From Sipunculus nudus (Eukaryota > Annelida > Sipuncula > Golfingiida > Sipunculidae): a stretch of DNA of 64,000 nucleotides. Shown here one piece after another: positions 225 through 27,426 of the stretch. Every line of letters starts with the position of its first letter. Position 1 is the first letter of the stretch. The DNA lies in contig CM049316.1 of assembly GCA_026874595.1 (NCBI GenBank), forward strand, positions 31,045,339-31,109,338, written 5' to 3'. A program made the position numbers and the translations under genes. The notes beneath the pieces are model-generated. The model searched no databases, was not told where the DNA came from, and worked only from the letters and a program-made list of their open reading frames with translations.

Positions 225-1850
225 TATACTGGATAGAGCATATATTACAGGTTACAAACACTAACTGGAGTATTTCATGCCCGAAGGGTTAGGGTAACCC
301 ATATACTTTATGGAGCATATATTACAGGTTACAAACGCTAACTGGAGTATTTCATGCCGGAAGGGTTAGGGTAACCCGCATACTGGATGGAGCATATATT
401 ACAGGTTACAAACACTAACTGGAGTATTTCATGCCCGAAGGGTTAGGGTAACCCACATACTGGATGGAGCATATATTAAAGGTGACAAACACTTACTGGA
501 GTATTTCATGCCCGAAGGGTTAGGGTAACCTGTATACCGTATAAAGTACATATTAATAGTGACAAACACTAAATTTAGTATTTCCTGAATGAAGGATATG
601 GGAATCCCTTATCCCGGATATAGCATATATTACCATAAACAAACACTTGCTGGAGTATGTCATGCAGAGGAATCTCAGATATACCATATATTCCTAGTGA
701 GAAACACTTACTAGAGTATTTCATGCCCGAAGGGTTAGGGTAACCCATATACTGGATGGAGCATATATTAAAGGTGACAAACACTTACTTGAGTATTTCA
801 TACCCGAAGGGTTAGGGTTACCCGTATCCCGAATACAGAATATATTAATACTAGCAAACTCTTACTGGAGTATTTAATAGTGACAAACACTAACTTGACT
901 TTTTCCTGTATGAATGGTTAGGGTAACCAATATACTGGTTATACCATATATTAATAGTGTCAAACTTTAACTGGAGTATTTCATGCCTGAAGGGTAAGGG
1001 TAATGCGTATACTGATAGAGCATACATTTATTATGACAAACACTTACTGGAGTATTTCATGTCCGAAGGGTAAGGGTTACCCTATCCAGGATGTAGCATA
1101 TATTCATACTTACAAACCATTATTGGGGTATTTCATGCGCGAAGGGTTAGGGTAACCCATATACTGAATGGAGCATATATTACAGGTTACACACACTTGC
1201 TGGAGTATTTCATGCCCGAAGAGTTAGGGTAACCCATATACTGGACTGAGCATATATTACAGGTTACAAACACTTACTGGAGTATTTCATGCCCGAAGGG
1301 TTAGGGTAACCCGTATACTGGATGGAGCATATATTACAGGTTACAAACACTTACTGGAATATTTCATGCCCGAAGGGTTAGGGTAACCCATATACTGGAT
1401 GGAGGATATATTACAGGTTACAAACACTTACTGGAGTATTTCATGCCCGAAGGGTAAGGGTAACCCGTATACTGGATGGAGGATATATTACAGGTTACAA
1501 ACACTTACTGGAGTATTTCATGCCCGAAGGGTTAGGGTAAACCGTATACTGGACGGAGCATATATTACAGGTTACAAACACTTACTGGAGTATTTCATGC
1601 CTGAAGGGTTAGGGTAACCCGTATACTGGATGGAGCATATATTACAGGTTACAAACACTTACTGGAGTATTTCATTCCCGAAAGTTAGGGTAACCCGTAT
1701 ACTGGATGGAGCATATATTACAGGTTACAAACACTTACTGGAGTATTTCATGCCGGAAGGGTTAGGGTTACCCGTATCCCAGATATAGCATATATGAATA
1801 CTGACTAACCCTTACTGGAGTATTTAATACTGACAAACACTAACTTCACA
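225..1850 (-). repeat. 77-bp satellite array, about 21 copies (minus orientation relative to the larger array)
   Basis: Tandem monomers repeat every 77 bp. The landmark GGGTTAGGGTAACCC recurs near 288, 364, 441, 518, 735, 1147, 1224, 1301, 1378, 1455, 1532 and 1609. Copies from about 1140 to 1780 are nearly identical; copies at 540-1100 are more diverged. Each monomer carries GGGTTA-GGG-TAACCC, an imperfect palindrome able to form a 6-bp stem with a 3-nt loop, and it contains the telomere-like string GGGTTAGGG. The reverse complement matches the monomers of the 14.8-26.5 kb array, so this is the same family inverted. Small open frames here are by-products of the repeat. Confidence 0.95.
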
Positions 1851-2218
1851 GTCCCAGACAGTTAGACATCTCGCGACAGTCCACGAAGAACACGTGAAAT
1901 GACCGACAGGAGTCGCAGGAGTAGCAAAAGAACCCTTCGGATGTTAGCTCAGATGATCGTATAAATTAAAGTTATGCAATAGTGCAGAAATATGAATAAC
2001 GGGCGTGCCTGTATCAATGATAAATAAGTATTAGATGTCAAGTATAATTAAGTTTACATGTAAATATAAATATGATACATATGCATGTGTAATATAGGTA
2101 TGCAACAGTGCAAATTATGAATACGGAGCGAGTCGCCATTAAAGATAATTCAATCTTTCATGTCAAGTATAAATATGTATACATTTAAAAACGGATATAT
2201 GCATATATATATTATAAT

Positions 2219-2221
<3 letters not shown>

Positions 2222-2279
<58 letters not shown>
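2222..2279. repeat. (TA)n microsatellite
   Basis: Uninterrupted TA dinucleotides inside the complex satellite unit; they produce Tyr-Ile open frames on both strands. Confidence 0.97.
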
Positions 2280-2282
<3 letters not shown>

Positions 2283-2370
2283 AATCCGTCGGCTTCCATG
2301 ATGCCAGAACTGTCCCAGAGGGTTAGACACTTCGACTTTTCGACACTGATCAGCAAGCATATGTGGAGCG

Positions 2371-2389
2371 CCCCCCCCCCCCCCCCCCC
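2371..2389. repeat. Poly-C homopolymer
   Basis: A run of about 19 C residues followed by CACACAC. The same position in the next satellite unit (about 3130-3146) also has a long C run, so the tract belongs to the unit. Confidence 0.95.
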
Positions 2390-2724
2390 ACACACACCAC
2401 TTGAGGAAGGCTGGAACGGTCCTAGACAGTTAGACGCTTCGACTTCTCGACAGCGATCAGGAAGAATGAAGGCGGGAACATTCCCAGACATTTAGACATC
2501 TCGCGACAGACCACGAAGAATACGCGAAATGACCGACAGGGGTCGCAGGTGTAGCAAAAAAAAAAACCCCTGCGCATGTCAGCACAGGAGCACGTATAGG
2601 AATAAAGATATGCAACAGTGCAGAAATATGAATAACGAGAGTGGTTGTATGAATGATAAAAATTTATTCGATGTCAAGTGTAATTAAGTTGAAATGTCAG
2701 TATAAATATGATACATATGCATAT

Positions 2725-2734
2725 ATATATATAA

Positions 2735-2804
<70 letters not shown>
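2725..2804. repeat. (TA)n microsatellite
   Basis: Long TA run with a few AAATA interruptions at its left edge, inside the complex satellite. Confidence 0.97.
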
Positions 2805-2809
<5 letters not shown>

Positions 2810-2931
2810 CAACAGTGCAAAATATGAATAACGAGCGAGTCGGCATTAAAGAAAATTAAATCTTTGAAGTCAAGTATGAATATGTATAAATGTAAAAATA
2901 AATATATGCATATATATATATTATAATTATA

Positions 2932-2952
2932 AATATATATATATATATTTAA

Positions 2953-3020
<68 letters not shown>
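2932..3020. repeat. (TA)n microsatellite, interrupted
   Basis: TA run with short TTTAAA and TG interruptions. Together with the neighbouring tract it yields a 147-residue Ile/Tyr open frame on the minus strand that is not a gene. Confidence 0.97.
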
Positions 3021-3026
<6 letters not shown>

Positions 3027-3892
3027 TAAAGCAGCATACAGCCGGGCCGACGGCTTCCATGATGCCAGAACTGTCCGGAAAGGTTAGACAAATCGACCTC
3101 TCGACACTGATCAGCAAGCAAACGTGGAGCCCCCCCCCCCCCCCCCATTAGCTTGAGGAAGGCTAGAACAGTCCTAGACAGTTAGACACTTCGACTTCTC
3201 GACAGCGATCAGGAAAAATGAAGGCGGGAACAGTCCCAGACAGTGAGACATCTCGCGACAGACCAGGAAGAATACGTGAAATGACCGACAGGGGTCGCAG
3301 GTGAAGCCAAAGAAACCCGGCGGATGTTAGTACAGAAGATCGTATAGGAAAAAAGATATGAAACAGTGCAGAAATATGAATAACGAGCGTGTCTGTATCA
3401 ATGATAAATATATATTTGATGTCAAGTATAATTTAGTTTACATGTAAATATAGATATAATACATATGCATATGTAATATAGGTATGCAACAGTGCAAATT
3501 ATGAATACGGAGCGAGTCGGCATTAAAGATAATTCAACCTTTGATATCAAGTATAAATATGTATACATGTAAAAATAAATATATGCATATATATATTATA
3601 TTTATAAAAGATGCCTATATATATTTTGAGAAAGGCTGGAGAAGTCCTAGACAGTTAGACACTTCGACTTCTCGACACCGACCAGGAAGAATGAAGGCGG
3701 GAACAGTCCCGGACAGTTAGACATCTCCCGACAGACCACGACGAATACGTGAAATGACCGACATACAAGGGAGTGTAACTCATTATGATTATGATCAGCT
3801 GGCCCAATATTGCCATGATTGATATGGTCCCACTTCCATAACCTCTTATGTTACCTGTACATCACTATAAATTACACAAGTGCCCTCTGCCC

Positions 3893-4111
3893 TTATCCAG
3901 TATCAGTTGGTTCAGCCAATGGACCAGCTATCGGTGACACTGTAGTATGTTTGTAGCGACAGCTTGTCACCCCAAACGTCGATTTTAGATGAACTGGAGA
4001 CGATGGGGTGACAGTACAAGCTATTGGGTTCGCATCAATTCTAGTATGTGCAGATGTGCACGCCATTTCTGACACTACTTTTTCATTTTCATCTACTTCT
4101 CGAACTGCCAT
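3893..4111 (-). CDS. Possible short coding exon of the dispersed element (unknown product)
   Basis: A 72-codon frame starts MAVREVDENEKVV and runs to a TAA, with the ATG three bases after an AG that ends a pyrimidine-containing stretch. It is hydrophilic, rich in Thr, Ser and Pro, and has no signal peptide or recognisable domain. The copy at 36.3-36.5 kb has lost about 8 bases just after the ATG and is out of frame. No family is recognised. The frame could end earlier by splicing, and it may be transposon- or pseudogene-derived. Confidence 0.25.
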   Translation of the reverse strand: MAVREVDENEKVVSEMACTSAHTRIDANPIACTVTPSSPVHLKSTFGVTSCRYKHTTVSPIAGPLAEPTDTG

Positions 4112-7999: not shown

Positions 8000-10425
8000 T
8001 AATTATTTTTGTGTAACAACATTTTTTCTTCGATATTAAGCACATATAATACGACTATATAAGCCTGTGATGCCAAATAATACCAGACATGAAATATTTT
8101 GATCCGACCCTTAGAATGGGCGTTCTGTTGTGACTGCCATCATGACTCCAGGCCCTATCAGTTTATTTCAGAAGGCCTGAGTGTCATGATTGTCATGGCT
8201 AGTATGTTTGGTGAAAGTGTATCAGTGCCAGAGCTAGTTACAAGGACACACCAACATTTGACCATAAGAGGCATATTATTACCATGACTGTCGGTTGGAT
8301 TTTTTATGAACAGTTGACAGTTAAGTAGTTTACAGATTAGCTCAATAGGACCTAGTTGATTGTAAAATATATTATTAAATATATGTATTTATTAAGATAT
8401 TAAAATTTATAGAGTTGAAATATAACTGATGTTTCAGTCCACAGATGCAAGGACCTGGTGTTTTTTTTTTAGGGGGGGGGGGGGGGTGGTGGAGTGGAGG
8501 GAATTGATGAGATTTGAGTTTAACATCTGAGGCATGACACAACTGAACATACAAGTTGCTTTCTAAGTTCATACTTGAATATCTGAAATCCATACACATT
8601 AACCATATGAAAGTTATTTTAACATTGTTATAGGAAAAAAAATGTTATTACATTTTTTATAATAAGGGAGAAATGCTGGACAAATGGAGCTGTTCACCTT
8701 ATGTTCAATTCACTTGAGGACAGTATATGTTTAAATCAGATTTTATTTTTTTTCTTATCCAATTATATTTCAAATGAAACCAATTTGTGCACATTTGCCA
8801 TAGATATTAAAATATCCCAGTGCACAAGTACAAATCAGCAGTTGGGGGGGGGGGGGGGGAGATTAACAATACTTATACATACTGGACAAATAAAGCCTGA
8901 TCTCCAATGCGGCTGGAGAGGAAAGAAAGGAAAAAATGTTTGTCTAATAGATCCTTATTGTATTATCTGGCATTTGTTTTATTTTATGTTTATATTTCTG
9001 TTGCTTGATATGAGAAAAACCGTACACCTGCCTCCCCCAGTGACTGTAGCAAATTAGGAACCCTTGCATGGTTGCCTTCCAGTGAAGAGGAGTGGGTTGG
9101 CAGCATCTGGAAAAAAACCATTGACTACAATAGAGCCTAAAAAATTAAGAACTAGCCTAATTTTCAAGCTTTTATTTTCATATTTCAGATGTAACAAATG
9201 AAATAGTTATGTTTACATGCAGGGAAATATAAATCAACAGTTCTCACAGAAAACAGAGATTGCCCTTTTTTAAGTTATATAAAATGTAAGGTGCTGATTT
9301 TTTATTATAATGCTAATAACTGGAAGGAATTACAAAATTCAGATCGAATTTTATGTTTACATTTGTAATTTTATTAAAACAAGGGACCCATGGGTCACGG
9401 CGCTGTTGTATATGATAAAAATTATGATTTAGAAATGAGGCACATGCTTGTTTTGTGTGGAAATAAATATAAGCTGTATTATGAGTTGTGGGTGTTTAGC
9501 TTATGTATGATTTTAATAGTATCTTTGGAGACAGGGAAGAGGATTGATTTCATTTATTTTATTAACAAATGGAGAGCTATTGTCACACAGATTTTGATTT
9601 GGCCATATAACTTATAAGCAGAACATGTAATATAAGAGTTAAACTATTTATTAAAAATAATTACAAATTGTCCCAAATATAATTTTTATTAAAAATAATA
9701 AGAGAATCGTATGAATAAAATACAACTGGAATGATTATTAAAATAATATCAAAGAATATATTCATGAATGCATTCATGAATACATTTTGAAAGTATTTGC
9801 ACTGGTAATCATATACTTTCATTTTTACCTCAATTCCCATTCTTATGCAAGAACTATTATAATGGAGTACATATTCATATTCATATTCAAATACATTGGC
9901 AAAGTATTCATACCATGGCTGGTATTTATTCAGTTTTCACCAAACAATGATGTTGAGAATCCAGAATATACAAAATTCACACATTTAAATAATGATCATA
10001 AGTACCTGGTTTCATGGCTTTTATTCAGTTTAAAAATAATAAATGTAATATATTCATTTTGGACTAATTTCACATCAATGTACACACTTGACTCAGCTGG
10101 AATCTAGATTAATATTATCAACTGCATCTTTGTCTAACATTAATTTCTTCATATGATCCCTAATGATTAGTAATGATAATATGATTTATTTTCTATCATT
10201 AAAATTGAACTGAGAAATGGCATAGGTGACTGCATGGTGTTATTTGGAATAGTTGACATTCTATCAATCGATACAAATTTTTATATCATCAGTAACTGCA
10301 AGTTAATTTCCTATCATTATCAACCAACAAATTCCTAGTCCATTTTTCTTTAATTTGTTATTAAAAACCAATAAAAATTTATTAATTTATTGTTTATTGT
10401 TATTTTGTTAGTTAAAACTACTAGA
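8000..10425. other. AT-rich stretch without recognisable genes
   Basis: Contains two poly-G runs (about 8472-8487 and 8845-8860) and scattered short frames with AT-driven composition. The frames at 8099-8287 and 9390-9617 have no family resemblance and no convincing splice boundaries, so they are not called. Confidence 0.6.
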
Positions 10426-10429
10426 TGAG

Positions 10430-12135
10430 TTGGGTTGGACACCTAGACCAACTGTGGCTGGCCATAAGCTGCCTGGCTGCCCCAGTGTATGCCTAGCGTC
10501 ATGCGTGCATAATTTGATGAAAGGTCAAGAAGGTCAACATACAGGTGACTCAAGAGGAGCTGGGGAGAGCTTAGGTCTGACATGGTCTCATTAAAACATG
10601 AATGAAAGCTACAATTTTTTGGCTAATATTTTTCAGCTTTCTAAACAAAAAAGCTGAAATCCTTAGGTGTGCATGATATGAAAATAATATCCACAGTGCT
10701 CACAGGAAACAAACATGCCATGGTCAAAGTTCGGCAAAATTTGAAGGTACTACATTTATATATATACTAATAACTTACATCCCTGACATGTTACATCCCT
10801 GACAAAAAGTATCAGCAATACACTTGTAAGGGGAGTTAATATATTTCTTGATTTTTTACAAAGTGCATTATGTTTTGGCCCATAGCTGAAAACAATTACG
10901 CAATAATGACATCATTTCTGGCATGTGCATAGAGAATGTATAGAAAAATATGTATATTATATATGATTAAATTCAGATCAGTGGTTTTGAAATGGAGAAA
11001 GTTTTTCATTAATAACTCAAAGGTATTAAGTCCTAGTGACCAAATTCTTGGCATGGTAGGGGATTTTGGAGACATCTGATTGTATGCCAAATTTTAGGAA
11101 CTGAGAGCTGAAGCAGGGGAGCTGAGCTCTTGCACATTTCATGACACTAGCTTAATGTAAACAATATGTTACATGGTGCTTCAAAACGTGAATAAAATCT
11201 GCACTTTTTGATCAACTGGTTCCAAATTTTCGGTGTTAACAGACAAAATTCTAACAAAAACATGCTATGAAAATTAAATCCACGGTACTTACAGGAAAGA
11301 AATGTGTTATGGTCAAAGTTGGGCAAAATTTAAGCTACCAATTTTTCATGTTTGTTAATATTTCAAAGGAATTTAAAAGATTGTGATCTAATTTTGGAAA
11401 TACAATTTAATTTTGACTAATTAAAGTTATATTACTGGGAAAAAAGTCCATAGCTTTAACATGTTTTGTGTTAAGTGGTCAAATATCTTTCCTGATTTTT
11501 TACAATGCATTATGGTTGGGCCCATAACTTGTGTTATTAATATAATACGGATATAATTTCTGGCATGTACATGGGAACTATATAGGGGAAAATTTATGTA
11601 AAAAATGAAGAAAAACAGATGAGTAGTTATGATATTAGGCAGTCCTGAAGTATGAAAATAGGTTTTTAAATAAGAAATGGAGGTTTTTCCTTCATTTCTC
11701 AAAGGAACCAAGTTGCAAAGACCCAGTTTTCGGCTTGGTAGGACATCTTGTGGACATCTAACCTTATGCCAAATTTTGGAGTCCTAGGTCTTACGGTTTC
11801 AAAACGTGCCTGATCTACGGACGGACGGACAGACGGCAGACAGCGGACAAAGGACCACGACTATAGTTCAGATGACTTATAGTCAGCTGAGCTAAAAAGG
11901 TCTGTACCATCAAAAAGGTTCATGTTTATCAAGCAATTATTTTTCCTCTTTCTTTTACAAAGCCCAATATGTTCAAGCCCATAACTTGTGGACATTACAC
12001 TGAAGTCTTAATTTCTGGCATTTATAGGAAATATATAGGAGAGACTCCTGGTAAATATAATAAAAAAGTCCCATCTGATTGCAATTTCTCAGTGTGCAAT
12101 GCTGACACCTATAGGCGGACAAAGTGATTAACAGT
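10430..12135. mobile_element. Degenerate mollusc-type dispersed repeat, about 2.5 internal tandem copies
   Basis: Similar blocks recur about 600 bp apart: CACAGTGCTCACAGGAAA...ATGGTCAAAGTTCGG (about 10690) and CACGGTACTTACAGGAAA...ATGGTCAAAGTTGGG (about 11282). A further shared block reads TTGGCATGGTAGGGGATTTT (about 11050) and TCGGCTTGGTAGGACATCTT (about 11730). It ends with ACGGACGGACAGACGG at about 11821 and CAGCTGAGCTAAAAA at about 11893. From memory, bivalve genomes carry abundant non-autonomous repeats with such GGACGGACAGACGG and GAGCTAAA ends. No intact protein frame is present. Confidence 0.65.
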
Positions 12136-12139
12136 GATA

Positions 12140-12960
12140 GTAAAAGGAATGTAGACATCCTGACTGATCACCAGGGGGGCCACTAAAGTTAAAAATTGAG
12201 ATGATCATAGGTTGCAATGGAGATACTGCATTGAAGACAGGAAGGATACTGTTTGTAATATATGTCTATTACTTTGGCTAAAGGTCATGTACACTGACAA
12301 ACATGTAAGGAGTGTCAGATGAGGGGGTGGGAGGGTAGGGGTTCCTGACCCATTTTTTTCGGGACATAATTTTTTTTTTTTGGGGGGGGGGGTTACAAAC
12401 CAAGTTATGCAATTTTTTTGTCTGTAAGTTTGTGTGGGATCGACCCTCCCCTTTCTGAGACTAGGGACCCATCTGTGAGAGATCAGTTTCTCACAGATGG
12501 CCATTGTAATATATGCAGTGATACGGGAGGGTTTCAAATAGAGCCCATGAAAGGAGACCATATATGAAAGCAGATAATTCCATATGAATATGAGATTGGA
12601 GTTCACACACTCACACAATGTTCAGCAGTGTAAGGCTTCAAACATGAATAAGCAAGAGATATCACATGAACAATTCATTTAAAAGACATGATCGCCAGTA
12701 TTTACCAAATTTTGTTAGTTGTACCAGCAATTAGAATAAGGGATGTACATGAATGAGAACACACTTTGTGTCGGTCTCAGAAAGTCCCAGATTTATTCCC
12801 TTGCACCGAAAGAGGCGAAACATGCAAGGGAATATATGAGGCTTGGAGAGCACAGTTGAGACGGAAACTTATCATGTGCCACTTGGGGTCAGGGCCAGCC
12901 CTACTAATAGGGCAGTCCTGCCAGTCCAAAGGCACAGGGGGACCTGACTGAACAGAGCAA
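12140..12960. other. Gene-poor interval with G-tract and hairpins
   Basis: Holds a T-run/G-run pair at about 12369-12391 and a perfect hairpin at 12469-12500. The 137-codon minus-strand frame across it contains Lys and Pro homopolymer strings from these runs and is rejected as a gene. Confidence 0.6.
12469..12500. other. Perfect 12-bp inverted repeat (hairpin)
   Basis: CCATCTGTGAGA at 12469-12480 and TCTCACAGATGG at 12489-12500 are exact reverse complements around an 8-nt loop. Confidence 0.9.
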
Positions 12961-12965
12961 ATGTG

Positions 12966-13041
12966 AAGAACCCTGTGTAATATATGAAAATATATCTATA
13001 TATATCTATATATATATTTATATATATTACACAGGGTTCTT
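12966..13041. other. Perfect 20-bp inverted repeat with AT-rich loop
   Basis: AAGAACCCTGTGTAATATAT at 12966-12985 is the exact reverse complement of 13022-13041. The 36-nt spacer is TA-rich and extends the possible stem. It lies about 300 bp beyond the stop of the minus-strand gene, so it could act in that gene's 3' region, or it could be a palindromic repeat remnant. Confidence 0.85.
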
Positions 13042-13250
13042 AATAAAGGAAATATATACAATGCAGTGATAATATGAAATTTGTAAGGCAGGTGAAAACC
13101 TATCCCATCAAAAAGCAAAATAACTCAGTGTCACTAAAACTGAAGCACCGATTCACTAAAACTGAGGCACCGATATATGTATGTCTGAAGCCCTAGCTAT
13201 TGAATATCATTTCATCACAATAAGAGTGCCTGTCCCATATTTATATGTAA

Positions 13251-13252
<2 letters not shown>

Positions 13253-13316
<64 letters not shown>
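13253..13316. repeat. (TA)n microsatellite
   Basis: Uninterrupted TA run just beyond the stop codon of the minus-strand coding exon. Confidence 0.97.
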
Positions 13317-13319
<3 letters not shown>

Positions 13320-13333
13320 TGTAAACCATGAAC

Positions 13334-14401
13334 CTAGACTAAAGTGTCCAGTTTCTCTGCAACTGTCTGACTGGAATGGATGGTCTCCCTCTGTGTTGGG
13401 CATGTCCCTATAGCTTGTACCCCAACGGGCACACCCGCATCCCCAGACACACCTTCAGCTGGTGTAACAGTGAATGTTTGGGAGTTCATTGTATTGGAGG
13501 ATTCCGCCTGACACTTGCTGCTGCTGTTGGTGTGTGGGGCAGAGGAGGCAGCACCACTTGTGCATACGGTGGCTGTTTTCAATGTTAGCACTAACTTTCT
13601 CCTCTTAGGGTTAGGGCTGCCATCCGTATCCAAGCACCCATCCTGTGCGGGGGAGGTTTTGTTAACTTGTTGATGTGGGTTTGGCAAATCTGGTGTACCA
13701 GGAGTTAGAGGAGGAGTCCTGTTCGCATCATGTGCAACGGAGCACCCCTCCTGTGCAGTGGAGCTTTGGTTGAGTTGTGGACCCAAGTTGGGCAAACCTC
13801 CTTGTGTACCCAGTGTCAGAGGAGGAGTCCTGTTCTTGTTGTCTGCAACCGGGAGGCCATCCTGTGCAGAGGGGGTTTCGGTAAAATCGTTCCCTGAGGC
13901 AGGCACACCTCGAGTGCTGCTAGCAGTCAAGGAAGGCTCCTGACTAGCATATTGATGTAGACTCTGGAAAGGGCTTGAAAACCTGAACCTGGAAAAGAAG
14001 ACCTCATCTCTACCGGAGTACAGCTGTTCAAGGGCATGCCTCCCCACGCGGGGGGTAATGGAGGCGGCATCGAAAGCCTCTGTGTATTCATCTTCGCTGG
14101 GATGAAGGACATGGAGCATATCTACCGGAATAGCATCTGGTGTAGTCTTGACAAAGACTTCTGTTGTTCTAGCTGAGGTCCCTAGTCTAACTTTCTTCAT
14201 GGAACCCATCCAACTTGAGACCAATGCTGCCATGACATTTTTCACAAGAAAGACCATAGGAAATTTGGCATGTTTTGACCTTTGAAGGTCTCTTGGTGTG
14301 ATGGCTGCACCAGCAGCCCGGACAATTGTGGCTTGCAGCAATTCTTCTGTGGGCGGAATGTTGATTGTTTCCCCCTCCATCTCACTAACTGCATCAAGCA
14401 T
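13334..14401 (-). CDS. Last coding exon of an unrecognised Ser/Thr/Pro-rich, probably nuclear protein
   Basis: This is the only long credible frame in the window, about 355 codons ending in TAG at 13334-13336. Base composition is much richer in GC than the flanks, as expected for coding DNA. I start it at 14401 because on the minus strand a pyrimidine-rich TTTTCTTCATTGCAG ends at 14402, directly before ATGCTTGATGC. It is either an internal/last exon or starts at that ATG. The first ~140 residues look folded, with hydrophobic helices (around FPMVFLVKNVMAAL) and a conserved-looking DMLHVLHPSEDEY. Residues about 165-270 hold three degenerate ~37-residue repeats sharing AQ(D/E)G, RTPPLT and LPN. 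PKRRKL at about residues 265-270 is a likely nuclear localisation signal. The rest is Ser/Thr-rich and low-complexity. No catalytic motif, signal peptide or membrane segment is seen, and I do not recognise the family. A domesticated transposon or chromatin/transcription protein is possible. Upstream exons must lie beyond 14402 and were not found before the satellite begins. Confidence 0.7.
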   Translation of the reverse strand: MLDAVSEMEGETINIPPTEELLQATIVRAAGAAITPRDLQRSKHAKFPMVFLVKNVMAALVSSWMGSMKKVRLGTSARTTEVFVKTTPDAIPVDMLHVLHPSEDEYTEAFDAASITPRVGRHALEQLYSGRDEVFFSRFRFSSPFQSLHQYASQEPSLTASSTRGVPASGNDFTETPSAQDGLPVADNKNRTPPLTLGTQGGLPNLGPQLNQSSTAQEGCSVAHDANRTPPLTPGTPDLPNPHQQVNKTSPAQDGCLDTDGSPNPKRRKLVLTLKTATVCTSGAASSAPHTNSSSKCQAESSNTMNSQTFTVTPAEGVSGDAGVPVGVQAIGTCPTQRETIHSSQTVAEKLDTLV

Positions 14402-14420
14402 CTGCAATGAAGAAAACAAA
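14402..14420 (-). other. Probable 3' splice site of the 13.3-14.4 kb exon
   Basis: On the minus strand, TTTGTTTTCTTCATTGCAG gives a good polypyrimidine tract and CAG. The open frame continues a few codons upstream, which is why a simple frame call would start in the intron. Confidence 0.6.
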
Positions 14421-14785
14421 GATCACTAACTGAACCTGTAGTGGTACAAAGCCATTTGTGCCACTTTATGGTATACTAAAAAAGAATAGCTAATGTCTTG
14501 GCAGCTCTTACAAACGTAGCAAGTAAAGCACAGGAAGGTAATGTATTATACACAAGTGCAGCTGCCTCTAACAAAAGTTAGTGTCATTTACCTGTTTTTA
14601 GCTCTCATTGAAGATTTAATAATTTCTGACCAGGTAGCAAATGAATCCTTGATACACTATCAAAAAAGAATCACACAAATTTATATCCAAGTGTTCAGAG
14701 GAAATATTTCTCATGAGAACAGGGCTTGGTAAAATCCCTAGTGCTGCAGGAAGTCATTGAAATGTCAGCTTGGAAATGTAAAGTA
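14421..14785. other. Unique stretch between coding exon and satellite
   Basis: No exon, RNA gene or repeat unit could be supported here. Further exons of the minus-strand gene might be present but none has clear splice signals. Confidence 0.5.
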
Positions 14786-17700
14786 TTTGTCAGTAGTAAT
14801 GTATGCTATATCCGGAATACGGATTACCCTTACCCTTTAGGCATGAAATATTCTCCAAATGTTTGTGGATAATAAGGTGTTCTATATACGAGATATGGGT
14901 TACCCTAACCCTTCGGGCATGAAATACCCCAGTAAGTGTTGTCACTGATGGTATGTGCTTTATCTGGGATATGGGTTGGACTAACCCTCTGGGTACGAAA
15001 TATTCTCCAAGTATTTGTCAATAATAATGTATGCTATATCAAAAATACGGGTAACCCTAACCCTTCAGGCATGAATACTCTCCAAATGTTTGTGGATAAC
15101 AATGTATGCTATAAGCGAGATATGGGTTACGCTAACCCTTCGGGCATGAAATACCCAAGTATTTGTGAGTATTAATGTATGCTATATCCGGAATACGGCT
15201 TACCGTAACCCTTCAGGCATGAATTACTCCCCTAATGTTTGTGGACAATAAGGTATTTTATATACGAGATATGGGTTACCCTAACCCTTCGGGCATGAAA
15301 TACCCCAGTAAGTGTTGTCACTGTTGGTATGTGCTGTATCTGGGATATGGTTTGGCCTGACACTCTGGGTATGAAATATTCTCCAAGTATTTGTCAATAA
15401 TAACGTATGCTATATCCGAAATACGGGTAAGCCTAACCCTTCAGGCATTAATACTCTCCAAATGTTTGTGGATAACAATGTATGCTGTAAGCGAGATATG
15501 GGTTACCCTAACCCTTGGGGCATGAAAAACCCCAGTAAGTGTTGTCACTACTGGTATGTTCTGTATCTTGGATATGGGTTGGCCCAACCCTCTGGGTATG
15601 AAATATTCTCCAAGTATTTGTCAGTATTAATGTATGCTATATCCGGAATACGGGTTACCGTAACCCTTCAGGCATGAAATACTCCCCTAAGGCTTGTGGA
15701 TAATAAGGTATTTTATATACGAGATATGGGTTACCCTAACCCTTCGGGCATGAAATACCCCAGTAAGTGTTGTCACTGTTGGTATGTGCTGTATCTGGGA
15801 TATGGGTTGGCCTAACCCTCTGAGTATGAAATATTCTCCAAGTATTTGTCAGTATTAATGTATGCTATATCAGGAATGCGGGTTTCCCAAACCCTTCAGG
15901 CATGAAATGCTCTCCAAACGTTTGTGGATAATAAGGTATTTTATATACATATATGGGTTACCCTAACCCTTCGGGCATGAAATACCCAAGTAAGTGTTGT
16001 CACTGTTGGTATGTGCTGTATCTGGGATATGGGTTGGCCTAACCCTCTGATATCCGGAATACGGGTTACCCTAACCCTTCAGGCATGAAATACTCTCCAA
16101 ATGTTTGTGGATAATAAGGTTACCCTAACCCTTCGGGCATCAAATACTACATCACCTGTTTGTTACTACTAATATGTGTTATATCCGGAATACGGGTTAC
16201 CCTAACCCTTCGGGCATGAAATACCCCATTAAGTGTTGTCGCTGTTGGTATGGGCTGTATGTGGGATATGGGTTTGGCTCACCCTCTGGGTATGAAATAT
16301 TCTCCAAGTATTTGTCAGTAGTAATGTATGCTATATCCGGAATACGGATTACCCTAACCCTTTAGGCATGAAATACTCTCCAAATGTTTGTGGATAATAA
16401 GGTGTTCTATATACGAGATATGGGTTACCCTAACCCTTCGGGAATGAAATACCCCAGTAAGTGTTGTCACTGTTGGTATGTGCTTTATCTGGGATATGGG
16501 TTGGACTAACTCTCTGGGTATAAAATATTCTCCAAGTATTTGTCAATAATAATGTATGCTTTATCCAAAATACGGGTAACCCTAACCCTTCAGGCATGAA
16601 TACTCTCCAAATGTTTGTGGATAACAATGTATGCTATAAGCGAGATATGGGTTACCCTAACTCTTCGGGCATGAAAAACCCCAGTAAGTGTTGTCACTAC
16701 TGGTATGTTCTGTATCTGGGATATGGTTTGGCCTTACCCTCTGGGTATGAAATATTCTCCAAGTATTTGTCAGTATTAATGTATGCTATATCCGGAATAC
16801 GGGTTACCGTAAGCCTTCAGGCATGAAATACTCTTATATCCGGAATACGGGTTACCGTAAACCTTCAGGCATGAAATAGTCCCCTAATGTTTGTGGATAA
16901 TAAGGTATTTTATATACGAGATATGGGTTACCCTAACCCTTCGGGCATGAAATGCCCCAGTAAGTGTTGTCACTGTTGGTATGTGCTGTATCTGGGATAT
17001 GGGTTGGCCTAACCCTCTGAGTATGAAATATTCTCCAAGCATTTGTCAGTATTAATGTTTTACCGTAAACCTTCAGGCATGAAATACTCTCCAAATGTTT
17101 GTGGATAATAAGGTATTCTATATACGAGATATGGGTTACCCTAACCGTTCTGAAATACCCCAGTAAGTGTTGTCACTGTTTGTAGGTGCTGTATCTGGGA
17201 TATGGGTTGGCCCAACCCTCTGGGTATGAAATATTCTCCAAGTATTTGTCAGTATTAAAGTATGCTATATCCGGAATGCAGGTTTCCCTAACCCTTCAGG
17301 CATGAAATACTCCCCAAAGGTTTTAGATAATAAGGTATTTTATATATGAGATATGGGTTACCCTAACCCTTCGGGCATGAAATACCCCAGTAAGTGTTTT
17401 CACTGTTGGTATGTGCTGTATCTGGGAAATGGGTTGGCCTAACCCTCTGAGTATGATATATTCTCCAAGTATTTGTCAGTATTAATGTATGATATATCCA
17501 GAATACGGGTTTCCCTAACCCTTCAGGCATGAAATACTCTCCAATTGTTAGTGGATAATAAGGTATTCTATATACGAGATCTGGGTTACCTAACCCTTCG
17601 GGCATGAAATACCCCATTAAGTGTTGTCACTGTTGGTATGTGCTGTATCTGGGATATGGGTTGGACCAACCCTCTGTGTATAAAATATTCTCCAAGTAAT

Positions 17701-19532
17701 TGTTAGTATTAATGTATGCTATATCCGGAATACGGGTTACCCTAACCCTTCAGGCATGAAATACTCTCCAAATGTTTGTGGATAATAAGGTTACCCTAAC
17801 CCTTCGGGCATGAAATACTACAGCAACTGTTTGTCACTACTAATATGTGTTATATTGGGAATACGGGTTACCCTAACCCTTTAGGCATGAAATACCCCAT
17901 TAAGTGTTCTCACTGTTCGTACGTGCTGTATCTGGGATATGGTTTGGCCTAACCCTCTGGGTACGAAATATTCTCCAAGTATTTGTCAATAATAATGTAT
18001 GCTATATCCAAAATTCGGGTAACCCTAACCCTTCAGGCATGAATACCCTCCAAATGTTTGTGGATAACAATGTATGCTATAAGCGAGATATGGGTTACGC
18101 TAACCCTTCGGGCATGAAATACCCCAGTAAGTGTTGTCACTGTTGGTATGTGCTGTATCTGGGATATGGGTTGGCCCAACCCTCTGGGTATGAAATATTC
18201 TCCAAGTATTTGTCAGTATTAATGTATGCTATATCCGGAATGCGGGTTTCCCTAACCCTTCAGGCATGAAATATTCGCCAAACGTTTGTGGATAATAAGG
18301 TATTTTATATACATATATGGGTTACCCTAACCCTTGGGGCATGATATACCCCAGTAAGTGTTGTCACTGTTGGTATGTGCTGTATCTGGGATATTGGTTG
18401 GCCTAACCCTCTGATATCCTGAATACGGGTTATCCTAACCCTTCAGGCATGAAATACTCTCCAAATGTTTGTGGATAATAAGGTTACCCTAACCCTTCGG
18501 GCATGAAATACTACAGCAACTGTTTGTCACTACTAATATGTGTTATATAGGGAATACGGGTTACCCTAACCCTTTAGGTATGAAATACTCTCCAAATGTT
18601 TGTGGATAATAAGGTGTTCTTTATACGAGATATGGGTAACCCTAACCCTTCGGGCATGAAATACCGCAGTAAGTGTTGTCACTGATGGTATGTGCTTTAT
18701 CTGGGATATGGGTTGGACTAACCCTCTGGGTACGAAATATTCTCCAAGTATTTGTCAATAATAAAGTATGCTATATCCAAAATACGGGTAACCCTAACCC
18801 TTCAGGCATGAATACTCTTCAAATGTTTGTAGATAACAATGTATGCTATAAGCGAGATATGGGTTACGCTAACCCTTCGGGCATAAAATACTCCAGTAAG
18901 TGTTGTCACTGTTGGTATGTTCTGTATCTGGGATATGGGTTGGCCTTACCCTCTGGGTATGAAATATTCTCCAAGTATTTGTCAGTATTAATGTATGCTA
19001 TATCCAGAATACGGGTTACCGTAACCCTTCAGGCATGAAATACTCTCCAAATGTTAGTGGATAATAAGGTATTCTATATACGAGATATGGGTTACCCTAA
19101 CCCTTGGGGCATGAAATACCCCAGTAAGTGTTGTCACTGTTGGTATGTGCTGTATCTGGGATATGGGTTGGCCCAACCCTCTGGGTATGAAATATTCTCC
19201 AAGTATTTGTCAGTATTAAAGTATGTTTTATCCGGAATGCGGGTTTCCCTAACCCTTCAGGCATGAAATACTCGCCAAACGTTTGTGGATAATAAGGTAT
19301 TTTATATACATATATGGGTTACCCTAACCCTTCGGGCATGAAATACCCCAGTAAGTGTTGTCACTGTTGGTATGTGCTGTATCTGGGATATTGGTTGGCC
19401 TAACCCTCTGATATCCGGAATACGGGTTATCCTAACTCTTCAGGCATGAAATACTCTCCAAATGTTTGTGGATAATAAGGTTACCCTAACCCTTCGGGCA
19501 TCAAATACTACATCACCTGTTTGTCACTACCA

Positions 19533-22330
19533 ATATGTGTTTTATCCGGAATACGGGTTACCCTAACCCTTCGGGTATTAAATACCCCATTAAGTGTTGT
19601 CACTGTTGGTATGGGCTGTATCTGGGATATGGGTTTGCCTCACCCTCTGGGTATGAAATATTTTCCAAGTATTTGTTAGTATTAATGTATGCTATAGCCG
19701 GAATACGGGTTACCCTAACCCTTCAGGCATGAAATACTCTCCAAATGTTTGTGGATAATAAGGTTACCCTAACCCTTCGGGCATGAAATACAACAGCAAC
19801 TGTTTGTCACTACTAATATGTGTTATATTGGGAATACGGGTTACCCTAACCCTTCGGGCATGAAATACCCTATTAAGTGTTCTCACTGTTGGTACATGCT
19901 GTATCTAGGATATGGTTTGGCCTAACCCTTTGGGTATGAAATATTCTCCAAGTATTTGTCAGTATTAATATATGCTGTATCCGGAGTACGGGTTACCCTG
20001 ACCCTTCAGGCATGAAATACTCCTCAAATGTTTGTCGATAATAATGTATGCTATATGCGAGATATGGGTTACCCTAACCCTTCGGGCATGAAATACCCCA
20101 TTAAGTGTTGTCACTGTTGGTATGTGCTGTATCTGGGACATGGTTTCGCCTAACCCTCTGGGTATGAAATATTCTCCAAGTATTTTTCAGTATTAATGTA
20201 TGCTATATCCGGAATATGGGTTACCCTAACCCTTCAGGCATGAAATACTCTCCAAATGTTTGTGGATAATAAGGTATTCTATATACGAGATATGGGTTAC
20301 CCTAACCCTTCGGGCATGAAATACCCCAGTAAGTGTTGTCATTGTTGGTATGTGCTGTATCTGGGATATGGGTTGGACTAACCCTCTGGGTATGAAATAT
20401 TCTCCAAGTATTTGTCAATAATAATGTATGCTATATTCGAAATACGGGCAACCCTAACCCTTCAGGCATGAATACTCTCCAAATGTTTGTGGATAACAAT
20501 GTATGCTATAAGCGAGATATGGGTTACCCTAACCCTTCGGGCATGAAAAACCCCAGTAAGTGTTGTCACTACTGGTATGTTCTGTATCTGGGATATGGGT
20601 TGGCCTAACCCTCTGGGTATGAAATATTCTCCAAGTATTTGTCAGTATTAATGTATGCCATATCCGGAATACGGGTTACCCTGACCCTTCAGGCATGAAA
20701 TACTCCTCAAATGTTTGTCGATAATAATGTATGCTATATGCGAGATATGGGTTACCCTAACCCTTCGGGCATGAAATACCCCATTAAGTGTTGTCACTGT
20801 TGGTATGTGCTGTATCTGGGACATGGTTTCGCCTAACCCTCTGGGTATGAAATATTCTCCAAGTATTTTTCAGTATTAATGTATGCTATATCCGGAATAT
20901 GGGTTACCCTAACCCTTCAGGCATGAAATACTCTCGAAATGTTTGTGGATAATGAGGTATTCTATATACGAGATATGGGTTACCCTAACCCTTCGGGCAT
21001 GAAATACCCCAGTAAGTGTTGTCATTGTTGGTATGTGCTGTATCTGGGATATGGGTTGGACTAACCCTCTGGGTATGAAATATTCTCCAAGTATTTGTCA
21101 ATAATAATGTATGCTATATTCGAAATACGGGTAATCCTAACCCTTCAGGCATGAATACTCTCCAAATGTTTGTGGATAACAATGTATGCTATAAGCGAGA
21201 TATGGGTTACCCTAACCCTTCGGGCATGAAAAACCCCAGTAAGTGTTGTCACTACTGGTATGTTCTGTATCTGGGATATGGGTTGGCCTAACCCTCTGGG
21301 TATGAAATATTCTCCAAGTATTTGTCAGTATTAATGTATGCCATATCCGGAATACGGGTTACCGTAACCCTTCAGGCATGAAATACTCCCCTAATGTTTG
21401 TGGATAATAAGGTATTTTATATACGAGATATGGGTTACCCTAACCCTTCGGGCATGAAATACCCCAGTAAGTGTTGTCACTGTTGGTATGTGCTGTATCT
21501 GGGATATGGGATGGCCTAACCCTCTGGGTATGAAATATTCTCCAAGTATTTGTCAGTATTAATGTATGCTGTATCCGGAGTACGGTTTACCCTAACCCTT
21601 CAGGCATGAAATACTCGTCAAATGTTTGTCGCTAATAATGTATGCTATACGCGAGATATGGGTTACCCTAACCTGTGGGGCATGAAATACCCCAGTCAGT
21701 TTTGTCACTGTTGGTTTGTGCTGCATCTGGGATATGGGTTGGCCCAACCCTCTGGGTATGAAATATTCTCCAAGTATTTGTCAATAATAATGTATGCTAT
21801 ATTCGAAATACGGGCAACCCTAACCCTTCAGGCATGAATACTCTCCAAATGTTTGTGGATAACAATGTATGCTATAAGCGAGATATGGTTTACCCTAACC
21901 CTTGGGGCATGAAATACCCCAGTAAGTGTTGTCACTGTTGGTATGTGCTGTATCTGGGATATGGGTTGGCCCAACCCTCTGGGTATGAAATATTCTCCAA
22001 GTATTTGTCAGTATTAAAGTATGTTATATCCGGAATGCGGGTTTCCCTAACCCTTCAGGCATGAAATACTCGCCAAACGTTTGTGGATAATAAGGTATTT
22101 TATATACATATATGGGTTACCCTAACCCTTCGGGCATGAAATACCCCAGTAAGTGTTGTCACTGTTGGTATGTGCTGTATCTGGGATATTGGTTGGCCTA
22201 ACCCTCTGATATCCGGAATACGGGTTATCCTAACTCTTCAGGCATGAAATACTCTCCAAATGTTTGTGGATAATAAGGTTACCCTAACCCTTTGGGCATC
22301 AAATACTACATCACCTGTTTGTCACTACTA
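19533..22330 (+). repeat. Higher-order block copy 1 (2798 bp)
   Basis: Starts at ATATGTGTTTTATCCGGAAT. The same start recurs at 22331 and 23732. The landmark TTTGTCGATAATAATG occurs at 20031 and 20714 in this block and at 24230 and 24913 in copy 3. Both pairs are 683 bp apart internally, and copies 1 and 3 are 4199 bp apart. Confidence 0.85.
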
Positions 22331-23731
22331 ATATGTGTTTTATCCGGAATACGGGTTACCCTAACCCTTCGGGCATTAAATACCCCATTAAGTGTTGTCA
22401 CTGTTGGTATGGGCTGTATCTGGGATATGGGTTTGCCTCACCCTCTGGGTATGAAATATTTTCCAAGTATTTGTTAGTATTAATGTATGCTATAGCCGGA
22501 ATACGGGTTACCCTAACCCTTCAGGCATGAAATACTCTCCAAATGTTTGTGGATAATAAGGTTACCCTAACCCTTCGGGCATGAAATACAACAGCAACTG
22601 TTTGTCACTACTAATATGTGTTATATTGGGAATACGGGTTACCCTAACCCTTCGGGCATGAAATACCCTATTAAGTGTTCTCACTGTTGGTACATGCTGT
22701 ATCTAGGATATGGTTTGGCCTAACCCTTTGGGTATGAAATATTCTCCAAGTATTTGTCAGTATTAATATATGCTGTATCCGGAGTACGGGTTACCCTGAC
22801 CCTTCAGGCATGAAATACTCCTCAAATGTTTGTCGATAATAATGTATGCTATATGCGAGATATGGGTTACCCTAACCCTTCGGGCATGAAATACCCCATT
22901 AAGTGTTGTCACTGTTGGTATGTGCTGTATCTGGGACATGGTTTCGCCTAACCCTCTGGGTATGAAATATTCTCCAAGTATTTTTCAGTATTAATGTATG
23001 CTATATCCGGAATATGGGTTACCCTAACCCTTCAGGCATGAAATACTCTCCAAATGTTTGTGGATTACCCTAACCCTTCGGGCATCAAATACCCCAGTAA
23101 GTGTTGTCATTGTTGGTATGTGCTGTATCTGGGATATGGGTTGGACTAACCCTCTGGGTATGAAATATTCTCCAAGTATTTGTCAATAATAATGTATGCT
23201 ATATTCGAAATACGGGCAACCCTAACCCTTCAGGCATGAATACTCTCCAAATGTTTGTGGATAACAATGTATGCTATAAGCGAGATATGGGTTACCCTAA
23301 CCCTTGGGGCATGAAATACCCCAGTAAGTGTTGTCACTGTTGGTATGTGCTGTATCTGGGATATGGGTTGGCTAACCCTCTGGGTATGAAATATTCTCCA
23401 AGTATTTGTCAGTATTAAAGTATGTTATATCCGGAATGCGGGTTTCCCTAACCCTTCAGGCATGAAATACTCGCCAAACGTTTGTGGATAATAAGGTATT
23501 TTATATACATATATGGGTTACCCTAACCCTTCGGGCATGAAATACCCCAGTAAGTGTTGTCACTGTTGGTATGTGCTGTATCTGGGATATTGGTTGGCCT
23601 AACCCTCTGATATCCGGAATACGGGTTATCCTAACTCTTCAGGCATGAAATACTCTCCAAATGTTTGTGGATAATAAGGTTACCCTAACCCTTCGGGCAT
23701 CAAATACTACATCACCTGTTTGTCACTACTA
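22331..23731 (+). repeat. Higher-order block copy 2, internally deleted (1401 bp)
   Basis: Matches the first ~700 bp and the last ~650 bp of copy 1 but lacks about 1.4 kb between. A junction is visible near 23065, where TTTGTGGAT runs straight into TACCCTAACCC instead of the usual ATAAGGTATTC. The landmark TTTGTCGATAATAATG occurs once (22829). Confidence 0.8.
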
Positions 23732-25750
23732 ATATGTGTTTTATCCGGAATACGGGTTACCCTAACCCTTCGGGCATTAAATACCCCATTAAGTGTTGTC
23801 ACTGTTGGTATGGGCTGTATCTGTGATATGGGTTTGCCTCACCCTCTGGGTATGAAATATTTTCCAAGTATTTGTTAGTATTAATGTATGCTATAGCCGG
23901 AATACGGGTTACCCTAACCCTTCAGGCATGAAATACTCTCCAAATGTTTGTGGATAATAAGGTTACCCTAACCCTTCGGGCATGAAATACAACAGCAACT
24001 GTTTGTCACTACTAATATGTGTTATATTGGGAATACGGGTTACCCTAACCCTTCGGGCATGAAATACCCTATTAAGTGTTCTCACTGTTGGTACATGCTG
24101 TATCTAGGATATGGTTTGGCCTAACCCTTTGGGTATGAAATATTCTCCAAGTATTTGTCAGTATTAATATATGCTGTATCCGGAGTACGGGTTACCCTGA
24201 CCCTTCAGGCATGAAATACTCCTCAAATGTTTGTCGATAATAATGTATGCTATATGCGAGATATGGGTTACCCTAACCCTTCGGGCATGAAATACCCCAT
24301 TAAGTGTTGTCACTGTTGGTATGTGCTGTATCTGGGACATGGTTTCGCCTAACCCTCTGGGTATGAAATATTCTCCAAGTATTTTTCAGTATTAATGTAT
24401 GCTATATCCGGAATATGGGTTACCCTAACCCTTCAGGCATGAAATACTCTCCAAATGTTTGTGGATAATAAGGTATTCTATATACGAGATATGGGTTACC
24501 CTAACCCTTCGGGCATGAAATACCCCAGTAAGTGTTGTCATTGTTGGTATGTGCTGTATCTGGGATATGGGTTGGACTAACCCTCTGGGTATGAAATATT
24601 CTCCAAGTATTTGTCAATAATAATGTATGCTATATTCGAAATACGGGCAACCCTAACCCTTCAGGCATGAATACTCTCCAAATGTTTGTGGATAACAATG
24701 TATGCTATAAGCGAGATATGGGTTACCCTAACCCTTGGGGCATGAAAAACCTCAGTAAGTGTTGTCACTACTGGTATGTTCTGTATCTGGGATATGGGTT
24801 GGCCTAACCCTCTGGGTATGAAATATTCTCCAAGTATTTGTCAGTATTAATGTATGCCATATCCGGAATACGGGTTACCCTGACCCTTCAGGCATGAAAT
24901 ACTCCTCAAATGTTTGTCGATAATAATGTATGCTATATGCGAGATATGGGTTACCCTAACCCTTCGGGCATGAAATACCCCATTAAGTGTTGTCACTGTT
25001 GGTATGTGCTGTATCTGGGACATGGTTTCGCCTAACCCTCTGGGTATGAAATATTCTCCAAGTATTTTTCAGTATTAATGTATGCTATATCCGGAATATG
25101 GGTTACCCTAACCCTTCAGGCATGAAATACTCTCGAAATGTTTGTGGATAATGAGGTATTCTATATACGAGATATGGGTTACCCTAACCCTTCGGGCATC
25201 AAATACCCCAGTAAGTGTTGTCATTGTTGGTATGTGCTGTATCTGGGATATGGGTTGGACTAACCCTCTGGGTATGAAATATTCTCCAAGTATTTGTCAA
25301 TAATAATGTATGCTATATTCGAAATACGGGTAATCCTAACCCTTCAGGCATGAATACTCTCCAAATGTTTGTGGATAACAATGTATGCTATAAGCGAGAT
25401 ATGGGTTACCCTAACCCTTCGGGCATGAAAAACCCCAGTAAGTGTTGTCACTACTGGTATGTTCTGTATCTGGGATATGGGTTGGCCTAACCCTCTGGGT
25501 ATGAAATATTCTCCAAGTATTTGTCAGTATTAATGTATGCCATATCCGGAATACGGGTTACCGTAACCCTTCAGGCATGAAATACTCCCCTAATGTTTGT
25601 GGATAATAAGGTATTTTATATACGAGATATGGGTTACCCTAACCCTTCGGGCATGAAATACCCCAGTAAGTGTTGTCACTGTTGGTATGTGCTGTATCTG
25701 GGATATGGGATGGCCTAACCCTCTGGGTATGAAATATTCTCCAAGTATTT
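23732..25750 (+). repeat. Higher-order block copy 3 (~2.0 kb before diverging)
   Basis: Follows copy 1 with the same internal landmark spacing until about 25750, where TCAATAATAATGTGTGC replaces the TCAGTATTAATG of copy 1. After that the monomer order differs, suggesting an exchange point. Confidence 0.8.
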
Positions 25751-26552
25751 GTCAATAATAATGTGTGCTATATTCGAAATACGGGTTACCGTAACCCTTC
25801 AGGCATGAAATACTCCCCTAATGTTTGTGGATAATAAGGTATTTTATATAGGAGATATGGGTTACCCTAACCCTTCGGTCATGAAATACCCCATTAAGTG
25901 TTGTCACTGTTGGTATGTGCTGTATCTGGGATATGGGTTGGCTTAACCCTCTGAGTATGAAATATTCCCCAAGTATTTGTCAGTATTAATGTATGCTATA
26001 TCCGGTATACGGGTTTCCCTAACCCTTCAGGCATGAAATACTCTCAAAATGTTTGTGAACAATAAGGTATTCTATATACGAGATATGGGTTACCCTAACC
26101 CTTCGGGCATGAAATACCCCAGTAAGTGTTGTCACTGTTGGTATGTGCTGTATCTGGGATATGGGTTGGCCCAACCCTCTGGGTATGAAATATTCTCCAA
26201 GTATTTGTCAGTATTAAAGTATGTTATATCCGGAATGCGGGTTTCCCTAACCCTTCAGGCATGAAATACTCTCCAAATGTATGTGGATAATCAGGTTACC
26301 CTAACACTTCGGGCATCAAATACTAGAGCAATTGTTTCTCACTACTAATATGTGTTATATCCGGAATACGGGTTACCCTAACCCTTCAGGCATGAAATAC
26401 TCTCCAAATGTTTGTGGATAACAATGTATGCTATATGCGAGATATGGGTTACCCTAACCCTTCGGGCATGAAATACCCCAGTAAGTGTTGTCACTGTTGG
26501 TATGTGCTGTATCTGGGATATGGGATGGCCTAACCCTCTGGGTATTCTCCAA

Positions 26553-26558
26553 GTATAT

Positions 26559-26641
<83 letters not shown>
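26553..26641. repeat. (TA)n microsatellite at the satellite boundary
   Basis: Long TA run that begins within a broken monomer (after CTCCAAGTATA) and ends the 77-bp array. Confidence 0.95.

Positions 26642-26644
<3 letters not shown>

Positions 26645-27384: not shown

Positions 27385-27394
<10 letters not shown>

Positions 27395-27426
<32 letters not shown>
27395..27426. repeat. (TA)n microsatellite
   Basis: TA tract preceded by CATACATACACACACA, inside the ~290-bp satellite; equivalent tracts occur in later units. Confidence 0.93.

What the first reader, a model, noticed from the sequence alone, without database searches (positions are those of the whole stretch)
14790..26545. Three-level higher-order satellite: 77 bp, 231 bp, then kilobase blocks
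Seen: three alternating monomer types make a ~231-bp trimer. Blocks starting at 19533, 22331 and 23732 share start and interior, with landmarks TTTGTCGATAATAATG at 20031, 20714, 22829, 24230 and 24913. The spacings 683, 683, 1401, 2798 and 4199 show that whole blocks were copied and that the middle copy lost about 1.4 kb. Inference: growth by unequal exchange, a pattern known for centromeric alpha satellite but seldom described in molluscs.
Basis: partly seen in the sequence, partly recalled or inferred. Interest (0 to 1): 0.75.

Follow-up and report, generated by a model that had tools for sequence, protein, structure and literature searches.

The report
Ordered satellite array inside a transposon
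A tandem repeat with nested levels of order, a pattern best known from centromeres, is real here, but it sits inside a large mobile DNA element that apparently also carried it to another chromosome, so it is probably not a centromere array.

Summary
The nested repeat is real. The monomer is 76 bp, not 77, and the trimer 228 bp. Types A, B, C follow each other in 126 of 155 steps (best of 1000 shuffles: 64). Above them lie 683-bp nine-mers (about 95%) and kilobase copies of 98-99.8% identity.

It does not look centromeric. The family core has 5020 sites; the 100 listed lie in 21 separate places on three contigs. In ten other array regions, 625 of 638 monomers are plain 77-mers.

The array belongs to a large DNA transposon with inverted ends. 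A complete 17.45-kb copy on C2 has the same internal DNA (94-96%), a 77-bp array, the same right arm and an exact 8-bp target duplication; a C5 copy has a 7-of-8 one. Ends pair in element geometry 13 times against 1.

A copy on C15, with both ends, carries the same ordered types, junction and right arm. B-C motifs occur at two further places, each about 11 kb from a right end.

Best reading: order arose inside the transposon, moved with it, and still grows by unequal exchange. The window copy is rearranged. Phylum and transposase are unproven.

The parts
14786..26550 (+). Higher-order satellite array: 76-bp monomers of types A, B, C in trimers, with D monomers at junctions
19533..22330 (+). 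Kilobase block 1 (2798 bp, holds three 683-bp nine-mers)
22331..23731 (+). Kilobase block 2 (1401 bp; 1397 bp shorter = 2 x 683 + 31)
23732..26545 (+). Kilobase block 3, 99-100% like block 1 for its first 2 kb
26554..26642 (.). TA run joining array and right arm; the same join at C15
26655..29877 (+). Right arm of the transposon, ending in the right end CATGGAGTAAGCCCC at 29863-29877
   Evidence: Matches C2 and C15 (96.3% over 891 bp); terminus
8200..14784 (+). Internal part of the transposon, 94-96% identical to the C2 copy, except 10882-12446 which C2 lacks
13334..14422 (-). Open frame of 362 codons, open in the C2 copy too; no Pfam match
1848..3953 (+). Left-arm units of the transposon; the left end itself is missing here
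225..1825 (-). Inverted plain 77-bp array of the same family; outside the window it continues in an inverted right arm ending at C11:31040478

Best explanation
The array is part of a large transposon with inverted ends (left GGGAACTACTCCATGTCCC, right GGGGCTTACTCCATGTCCC, 8-bp target duplications) that carries a tandem array of a 77-bp repeat beside its right arm. In one lineage of this element diverged monomers A, B and C became fixed as a trimer. Exchange or copying between misaligned repeats inside the element then made nine-mers and, most recently, kilobase blocks. Transposition placed the ordered array on two chromosomes (C11 and C15), where each array went on rearranging by itself. The window copy was later rearranged: it has two inverted right ends and no left end, and it lacks about 1.3 kb where the array now begins. 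Shown by sequence: the order, the levels, the shared element parts, the ends, and target duplications at two other copies. Inferred: that a transposase moved it, the order of events, and the exchange mechanism.
For: Order and types. Ladder of identities: between types 0.62-0.71, within type 0.90-0.93, nine-mers about 0.95, blocks 0.98-0.998. Same internal DNA, a 77-bp array and the right arm on C2, with both ends and the 8-bp duplication CAATTTTG. C5: left arm, array, right arm, with CTGAATTC/CTGGATTC. Right-end search: 38 places on 16 contigs, 32 starting at the terminal base; left-end search: 24 places on 14 contigs, 19 starting at base 1; pairs within 90 kb: 13 in element geometry (11 of them with both matches starting at the terminal base), 1 otherwise. 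C15: same ABC/D order, the 108-54-77 junction, the array-TA-right arm join, right arm 96.3% over 891 bp, the same terminus, and a left end 21.4 kb away. Type A motif: 47 places, only window array (17) and C15 (30). Type B 100 and type C 85 places; outside those two arrays only 3 and 3, all at C11:50.18 Mb and C12:72.04 Mb, about 11 kb from a right end in the matching orientation.
Against: The window copy has no left end and its two right ends are flanked by different octamers (GAGATCCG, GCGTGGTC), so it is not itself a clean insertion. No transposase was found: the 362-aa frame and 10 other open frames have no convincing Pfam match. About 3 kb of C15 DNA upstream of its array matches neither the window, C2 nor C5, and its target duplication was not read. 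The right end at C12:72.03 Mb is only 92% like the window's, less than many places without B or C motifs, so the four loci are not shown to be one lineage. The 77-bp family also sits in a different carrier on C3 and C12. Movement of the array by ectopic recombination or gene conversion is not excluded.
Confidence: 0.8

Rival explanations
1. A centromeric or pericentromeric satellite like alpha satellite, of which the window shows one higher-order array.
For: True higher-order organisation with very similar blocks.
Against: 5020 core sites; the 100 listed fall into 21 separate places on C1-C3. Arrays read here are roughly 1.6-15 kb, and C11 has at least two. The array is bounded by transposon parts. 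The position of the centromere is not known.
Confidence: 0.04
2. An assembly artefact: block copies created or lost by collapse or misjoining of reads.
For: Long exact repeats (912, 691, 642 bp) are the kind of sequence that assemblers get wrong, and no reads were available.
Against: Types and trimer are too diverged to be artefacts. The separate C15 array has a different block period of 1421 bp (37386654, 37388075, 37389496). The genome is 1.43 Gb in 153 contigs.
Confidence: 0.06
3. The array is an independent satellite that expanded at its own site, and its closeness to transposon parts is secondary; the C15 likeness arose by ectopic gene conversion or segmental duplication.
For: The same family also lies in another carrier, and at its start the array borders element DNA that on C2 continues for 1.34 kb before the array.
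Against: Array, TA run, right arm and terminus come in the same order at C11 and C15, and 77-mer arrays of the same family stand in that place on C2 and C5. The C15 match stops at the element terminus.
Confidence: 0.1

Closest known systems
Tetris, a foldback transposon of Drosophila virilis (PMC4079207; passages read)
   Same: A non-autonomous element with 8-10-bp target duplications that holds a variable tandem array, which amplifies inside the element and gives satellite arrays.
   Different: Tetris repeats are about 220 bp, lie in both inverted repeats and are homogeneous (about 94%); 'higher-order' has 0 occurrences in its main text. Here the C2 and C5 copies have the array on one side only, and one lineage is ordered as trimer, nine-mer and blocks.
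Cg_HINE Helentron elements of Crassostrea gigas (PMC7492417; abstract and one section read)
   Same: Short satellite-like arrays dispersed over a genome as central repeats of non-autonomous mobile elements, sometimes two array types in a row.
   Different: HINEs have sub-terminal inverted repeats and a 3' palindrome and, as I recall, make no target duplication; these elements have terminal inverted repeats and 8-bp target duplications.
Human centromeric alpha-satellite higher-order repeats (recalled)
   Same: Diverged monomer types in fixed order, with larger copies far more alike than neighbouring monomers.
   Different: Alpha satellite forms very long centromeric arrays; this is an 11.8-kb array in a dispersed mobile element.

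Membership tests
Higher-order satellite repeat | Monomer types recur in fixed order and cluster by type, not by position | tested here: met
   126 of 155 steps cyclic; A 52/52, B 49/49, C 43/43 as clean splits
Higher-order satellite repeat | Multimer copies more alike than the monomers within them | tested here: met
   Nine-mers about 0.95, blocks 0.98-0.998, monomer types 0.62-0.71
Centromeric satellite | One main long array per chromosome at the centromere | tested here: not met
   Many short arrays: 21 places in the first 100 listed core sites on C1-C3; at least two on C11. Long arrays missing from the assembly are not excluded
Centromeric satellite | CENP-A chromatin | not testable with these tools
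   No chromatin data
Inverted-end DNA transposon | Terminal inverted repeats at fixed ends in many copies | tested here: met
   32 of 38 right-end and 19 of 24 left-end matches start at the terminal base; 13 pairs in element geometry against 1
Inverted-end DNA transposon | Target-site duplication | tested here: met
   8 of 8 at C2 and 7 of 8 at C5, the two copies with both ends and flanks in hand. The window's own copy fails: its two right ends have different flanking octamers
Inverted-end DNA transposon | Transposase gene | tested here: inconclusive
   No convincing Pfam match in the 362-aa frame or 10 other open frames (best E 0.042, below cut-off); superfamily searches did not complete
Foldback element (Tetris type) | Tandem arrays in both long inverted repeats | tested here: not met
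   On C2 and C5 the array is on the right-arm side only. The window copy has arrays on both sides, but as a rearranged copy
Helentron / HINE | No target duplication | tested here: not met
   8-bp duplications at C2 and C5; that Helentrons lack them is recalled

The most novel reading that the evidence does not exclude
Higher-order satellite structure can be built inside a mobile DNA transposon and transposed ready-made: two element copies on different chromosomes carry the same ordered array, and two further places near element ends hold a single B-C pair that may be the unamplified seed. Higher-order organisation would then need neither a centromere nor selection for one.
Probability: 0.6. 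Interest if true: 0.62.

Novelty: new variant of a known kind. Interest (0 to 1): 0.5.

Why it matters
Why satellites become ordered in higher-order repeats is usually argued from huge centromeres that are hard to sequence and possibly under centromere drive. Here the ladder from a plain 77-bp repeat to trimer, nine-mer and kilobase block lies in 12 kb, in an element with plain copies, two ordered copies and possible seed copies in one genome. That makes the steps comparable copy by copy, and it shows a satellite family apparently spread by a transposon that is not a Helentron.

Tried and rejected
Centromere reading: rejected on dispersal and transposon boundaries. Helentron reading: rejected because of 8-bp target duplications. 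A hAT-like string (CAGTGGCGTATCCAGG, likeness recalled) at 26713-26733 was tested as an element end; no partner in the window. The idea that the window's two inverted arms make one transposed foldback element was dropped: the flanking octamers differ, and C2 and C5 show another left end. A first value of 94.3% for block 1 against block 3 mixes a near-identical 2 kb with a diverged tail. Pfam, NCBIfam and PDB sequence searches of the 362-aa frame gave nothing useful. The mollusc haemocyanin search was uninformative. A text search for monomer letters in the paper library gave 0 papers. Structure prediction was not used. Monomers were picked by an anchor motif; only those of 60-90 bp between anchors were classed, others were left out.
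Full report
WHAT IS THERE. Tandem Repeats Finder gives periods of 76 and 227-228 for the array at 14786-26537 and 77 for a second, inverted array at 225-1825. I cut the right array into 156 monomers by an anchor motif. Mean identity is 0.84 at lag 3 against 0.67-0.68 at lags 1 and 2. Clustering gives A 52, B 49, C 43 and D 12; 126 of 155 neighbouring steps follow A-B-C, the best of 1000 shuffles having 64; in a FastTree tree A, B and C are each one split without foreign members, with support 0.96, 0.76 and 0.98. D is nearest to the 77-bp family consensus (0.909 against 0.79-0.88 for A, B and C), and 10 of 12 D monomers follow a truncated 54-bp monomer in the recurring junction with spacings 54-77, often preceded by 108.

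LEVELS AND AGES. A, B and C differ from each other by 29-39%; copies of one type differ by 7-10%. The 683-bp copies are about 95% identical over 1.3-1.6 kb, 92-97% copy by copy within block 1. Kilobase copies are 98.2% (lag 4199, 2664 bp), 99.1% (lag 2798, 1229 bp) and 99.8% (lag 1401, 1093 bp, 2 mismatches), with exact runs up to 912 bp. Blocks 1 and 3 are 99-100% alike for their first 2 kb of alignment and then fall to 0.86-0.97, and 0.67 in the last 21 columns. So the larger the unit, the younger the copy. Block 2 is shorter by 1397 bp = 2 x 683 + 31; loss or gain cannot be told from this sequence.

NOT A CENTROMERE-TYPE ARRAY. The window lies at C11:31045339-31109338 of a 1.43-Gb assembly in 153 contigs. 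The 31-bp core, with at most one mismatch, occurs 5020 times, the reversed control 0 times; only the first 100 places are listed, and they fall in 21 separate places on C1, C2 and C3. I read ten other array regions, some only in part: the window's own left array and nine places elsewhere. Of 638 monomers classed there, 625 are nearest to the plain 77-bp consensus; 11 of the 13 exceptions are on C5 (8 C-like, 3 D-like), the others one each at C11:57 Mb and C12:78 Mb. Some of the C-like monomers on C5 are spaced by five or six, a hint of another local order. Higher-order structure is therefore local, not a property of the family.

THE CARRIER. The contiguous stretch L035, L034, L031, L036 (C2:66947001-66974000) contains window 8200-10881 at 95.2%, 12447-12713 at 96.3% and 12709-14784 at 94.1%, left-arm units, a 77-bp array and the right arm. 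It has a left end GGGAACTACTCCATGTCCC at offset 9199 and a right end at offset 26648, both flanked by CAATTTTG: a complete insertion of 17.45 kb. The C5 region has left arm, 77-bp array and right arm between ends 26.2 kb apart, flanked by CTGAATTC and CTGGATTC. A search with 133 bp of right end gives 38 places on 16 contigs, 32 of them starting at the terminal base; one with 169 bp of left end gives 24 places on 14 contigs, 19 starting at base 1. Within 90 kb, a limit that I chose, 13 left-right pairs have the geometry of an element and 1 does not; in 11 of the 13 both matches start at the terminal base. Sizes run from 578 bp (two on C1) to 28 kb, with one of 79 kb.

THE WINDOW COPY. On the right it has internal DNA, array, TA run, right arm and right end at 29877. 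On the left, instead of a left end, an inverted right arm ends at C11:31040478 and is joined through the inverted 77-bp array to left-arm units. The octamers outside the two right ends differ (GAGATCCG, GCGTGGTC). It is thus a rearranged copy. Relative to C2 it has extra DNA at about 3954-8199 and 10882-12446 and lacks 1.34 kb at the array start, where flank and array share AAGT at the break. The 362-codon frame is open in both copies, with 25 amino-acid-changing and 15 silent codon differences and one in-frame codon gap. Relatives of it lie at ten places in the genome, this one included; all but the window and C2 ones are split or hold stops. No transposase was identified.

THE ORDERED ARRAY MOVED. 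With 3 mismatches allowed, the type-A motif is found at 47 places, only in the window array (17) and at C15:37.379-37.393 Mb (30). Type B: 100 places, 45 window, 52 C15, 1 at C11:50.18 Mb, 2 at C12:72.04 Mb. Type C: 85 places, 41 window, 41 C15, 2 at C11:50.18 Mb, 1 at C12:72.04 Mb. I read three pieces of C15 (12 kb of the 21.4 kb). They show ABC order with D and the 108-54-77 junction, a TA run, a right arm 96.3% identical to window 26615-27502 and the same terminus; a left end lies 21.4 kb away. C15 has its own block period of 1421 bp. About 3 kb upstream of its array matches none of the window, C2 and C5 regions, and its outer left flank was not read. One adjacent B-C pair each at C11:50.18 Mb and C12:72.04 Mb lies about 11 kb from a right end in matching orientation. 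Against one simple lineage: the right end at C12:72.03 Mb is 92% like the window's, while several places without B or C motifs reach 95%.

MECHANISM. Shown: local order, nested copies of rising identity, shared element parts, inverted ends, target duplications at two other copies. Inferred: that diverged 77-mers inside one element lineage were amplified as a trimer, that the element carried the trimer array between C11 and C15, and that exchange between misaligned repeats made nine-mers and blocks, at each site separately. Unequal exchange, conversion, slippage and break-induced replication cannot be told apart here.

COMPARISON. Satellite growth inside a transposon is known from Tetris (passages read), and dispersal of satellite-like arrays by non-autonomous Helentrons from the oyster (abstract and one section read). 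In two oyster satellitome papers 'higher-order' has 0 occurrences in the main text. A paper on the bivalve Adamussium speaks of higher-order repeat units formed from subrepeats (one passage read). Among the titles and abstract beginnings listed by searches I saw no higher-order repeat described as carried by a transposon; the library holds open-licence papers only, most listed papers were not opened, and this does not prove absence.

LIMITS. No reads, no chromatin data, no species name. The genome search says that its repeat counts are lower bounds. Whether the species is a mollusc was not established.

Noticed in passing
L009-L013 (C3:8.954-8.969 Mb) and L023-L027 (C12:77.996-78.018 Mb); partly L018-L022 (C11:57.055-57.077 Mb): A second carrier of the 77-bp family: ends GAGATAGGCGGGGAACTGTCGG / CCGACAGTTCCCCGCATATATG, 8-bp target duplications CCATTTCT (C3) and AAGTATCG (C12), holding a 101-bp array next to the 77-bp array. 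The C11 copy shares the left end and about 7 kb of 95-98% identical flank with C12, but no right end was seen.
   Followed up: partly
G000 C1:65913001-65913578 and C1:66835259-66835836: Two 578-bp pairs of the transposon's left and right ends, which look like short deletion derivatives.
   Followed up: no
L014-L017 (C5), array offsets 8186-23354: Eight C-like monomers on C5, four of the seven gaps between them being five or six monomers: a possible independent local order.
   Followed up: partly
window 3954-8199: About 4.2 kb absent from the C2 copy; the matches on either side overlap by about 11 bp on C2, as after an insertion. Its left edge 3952-4350 is 87% identical, inverted, to 36101-36501.
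   Followed up: no
window 13334-14422 (-): 362-codon frame with relatives at ten places in the genome (C2, C3, C6, C10, C11, C16) and no Pfam family.
   Followed up: partly
arrays of the family in the window and elsewhere: The monomer core GGGTTACCCTAACCC contains telomere-like CCCTAA words (likeness recalled); whether this matters is unknown.
   Followed up: no
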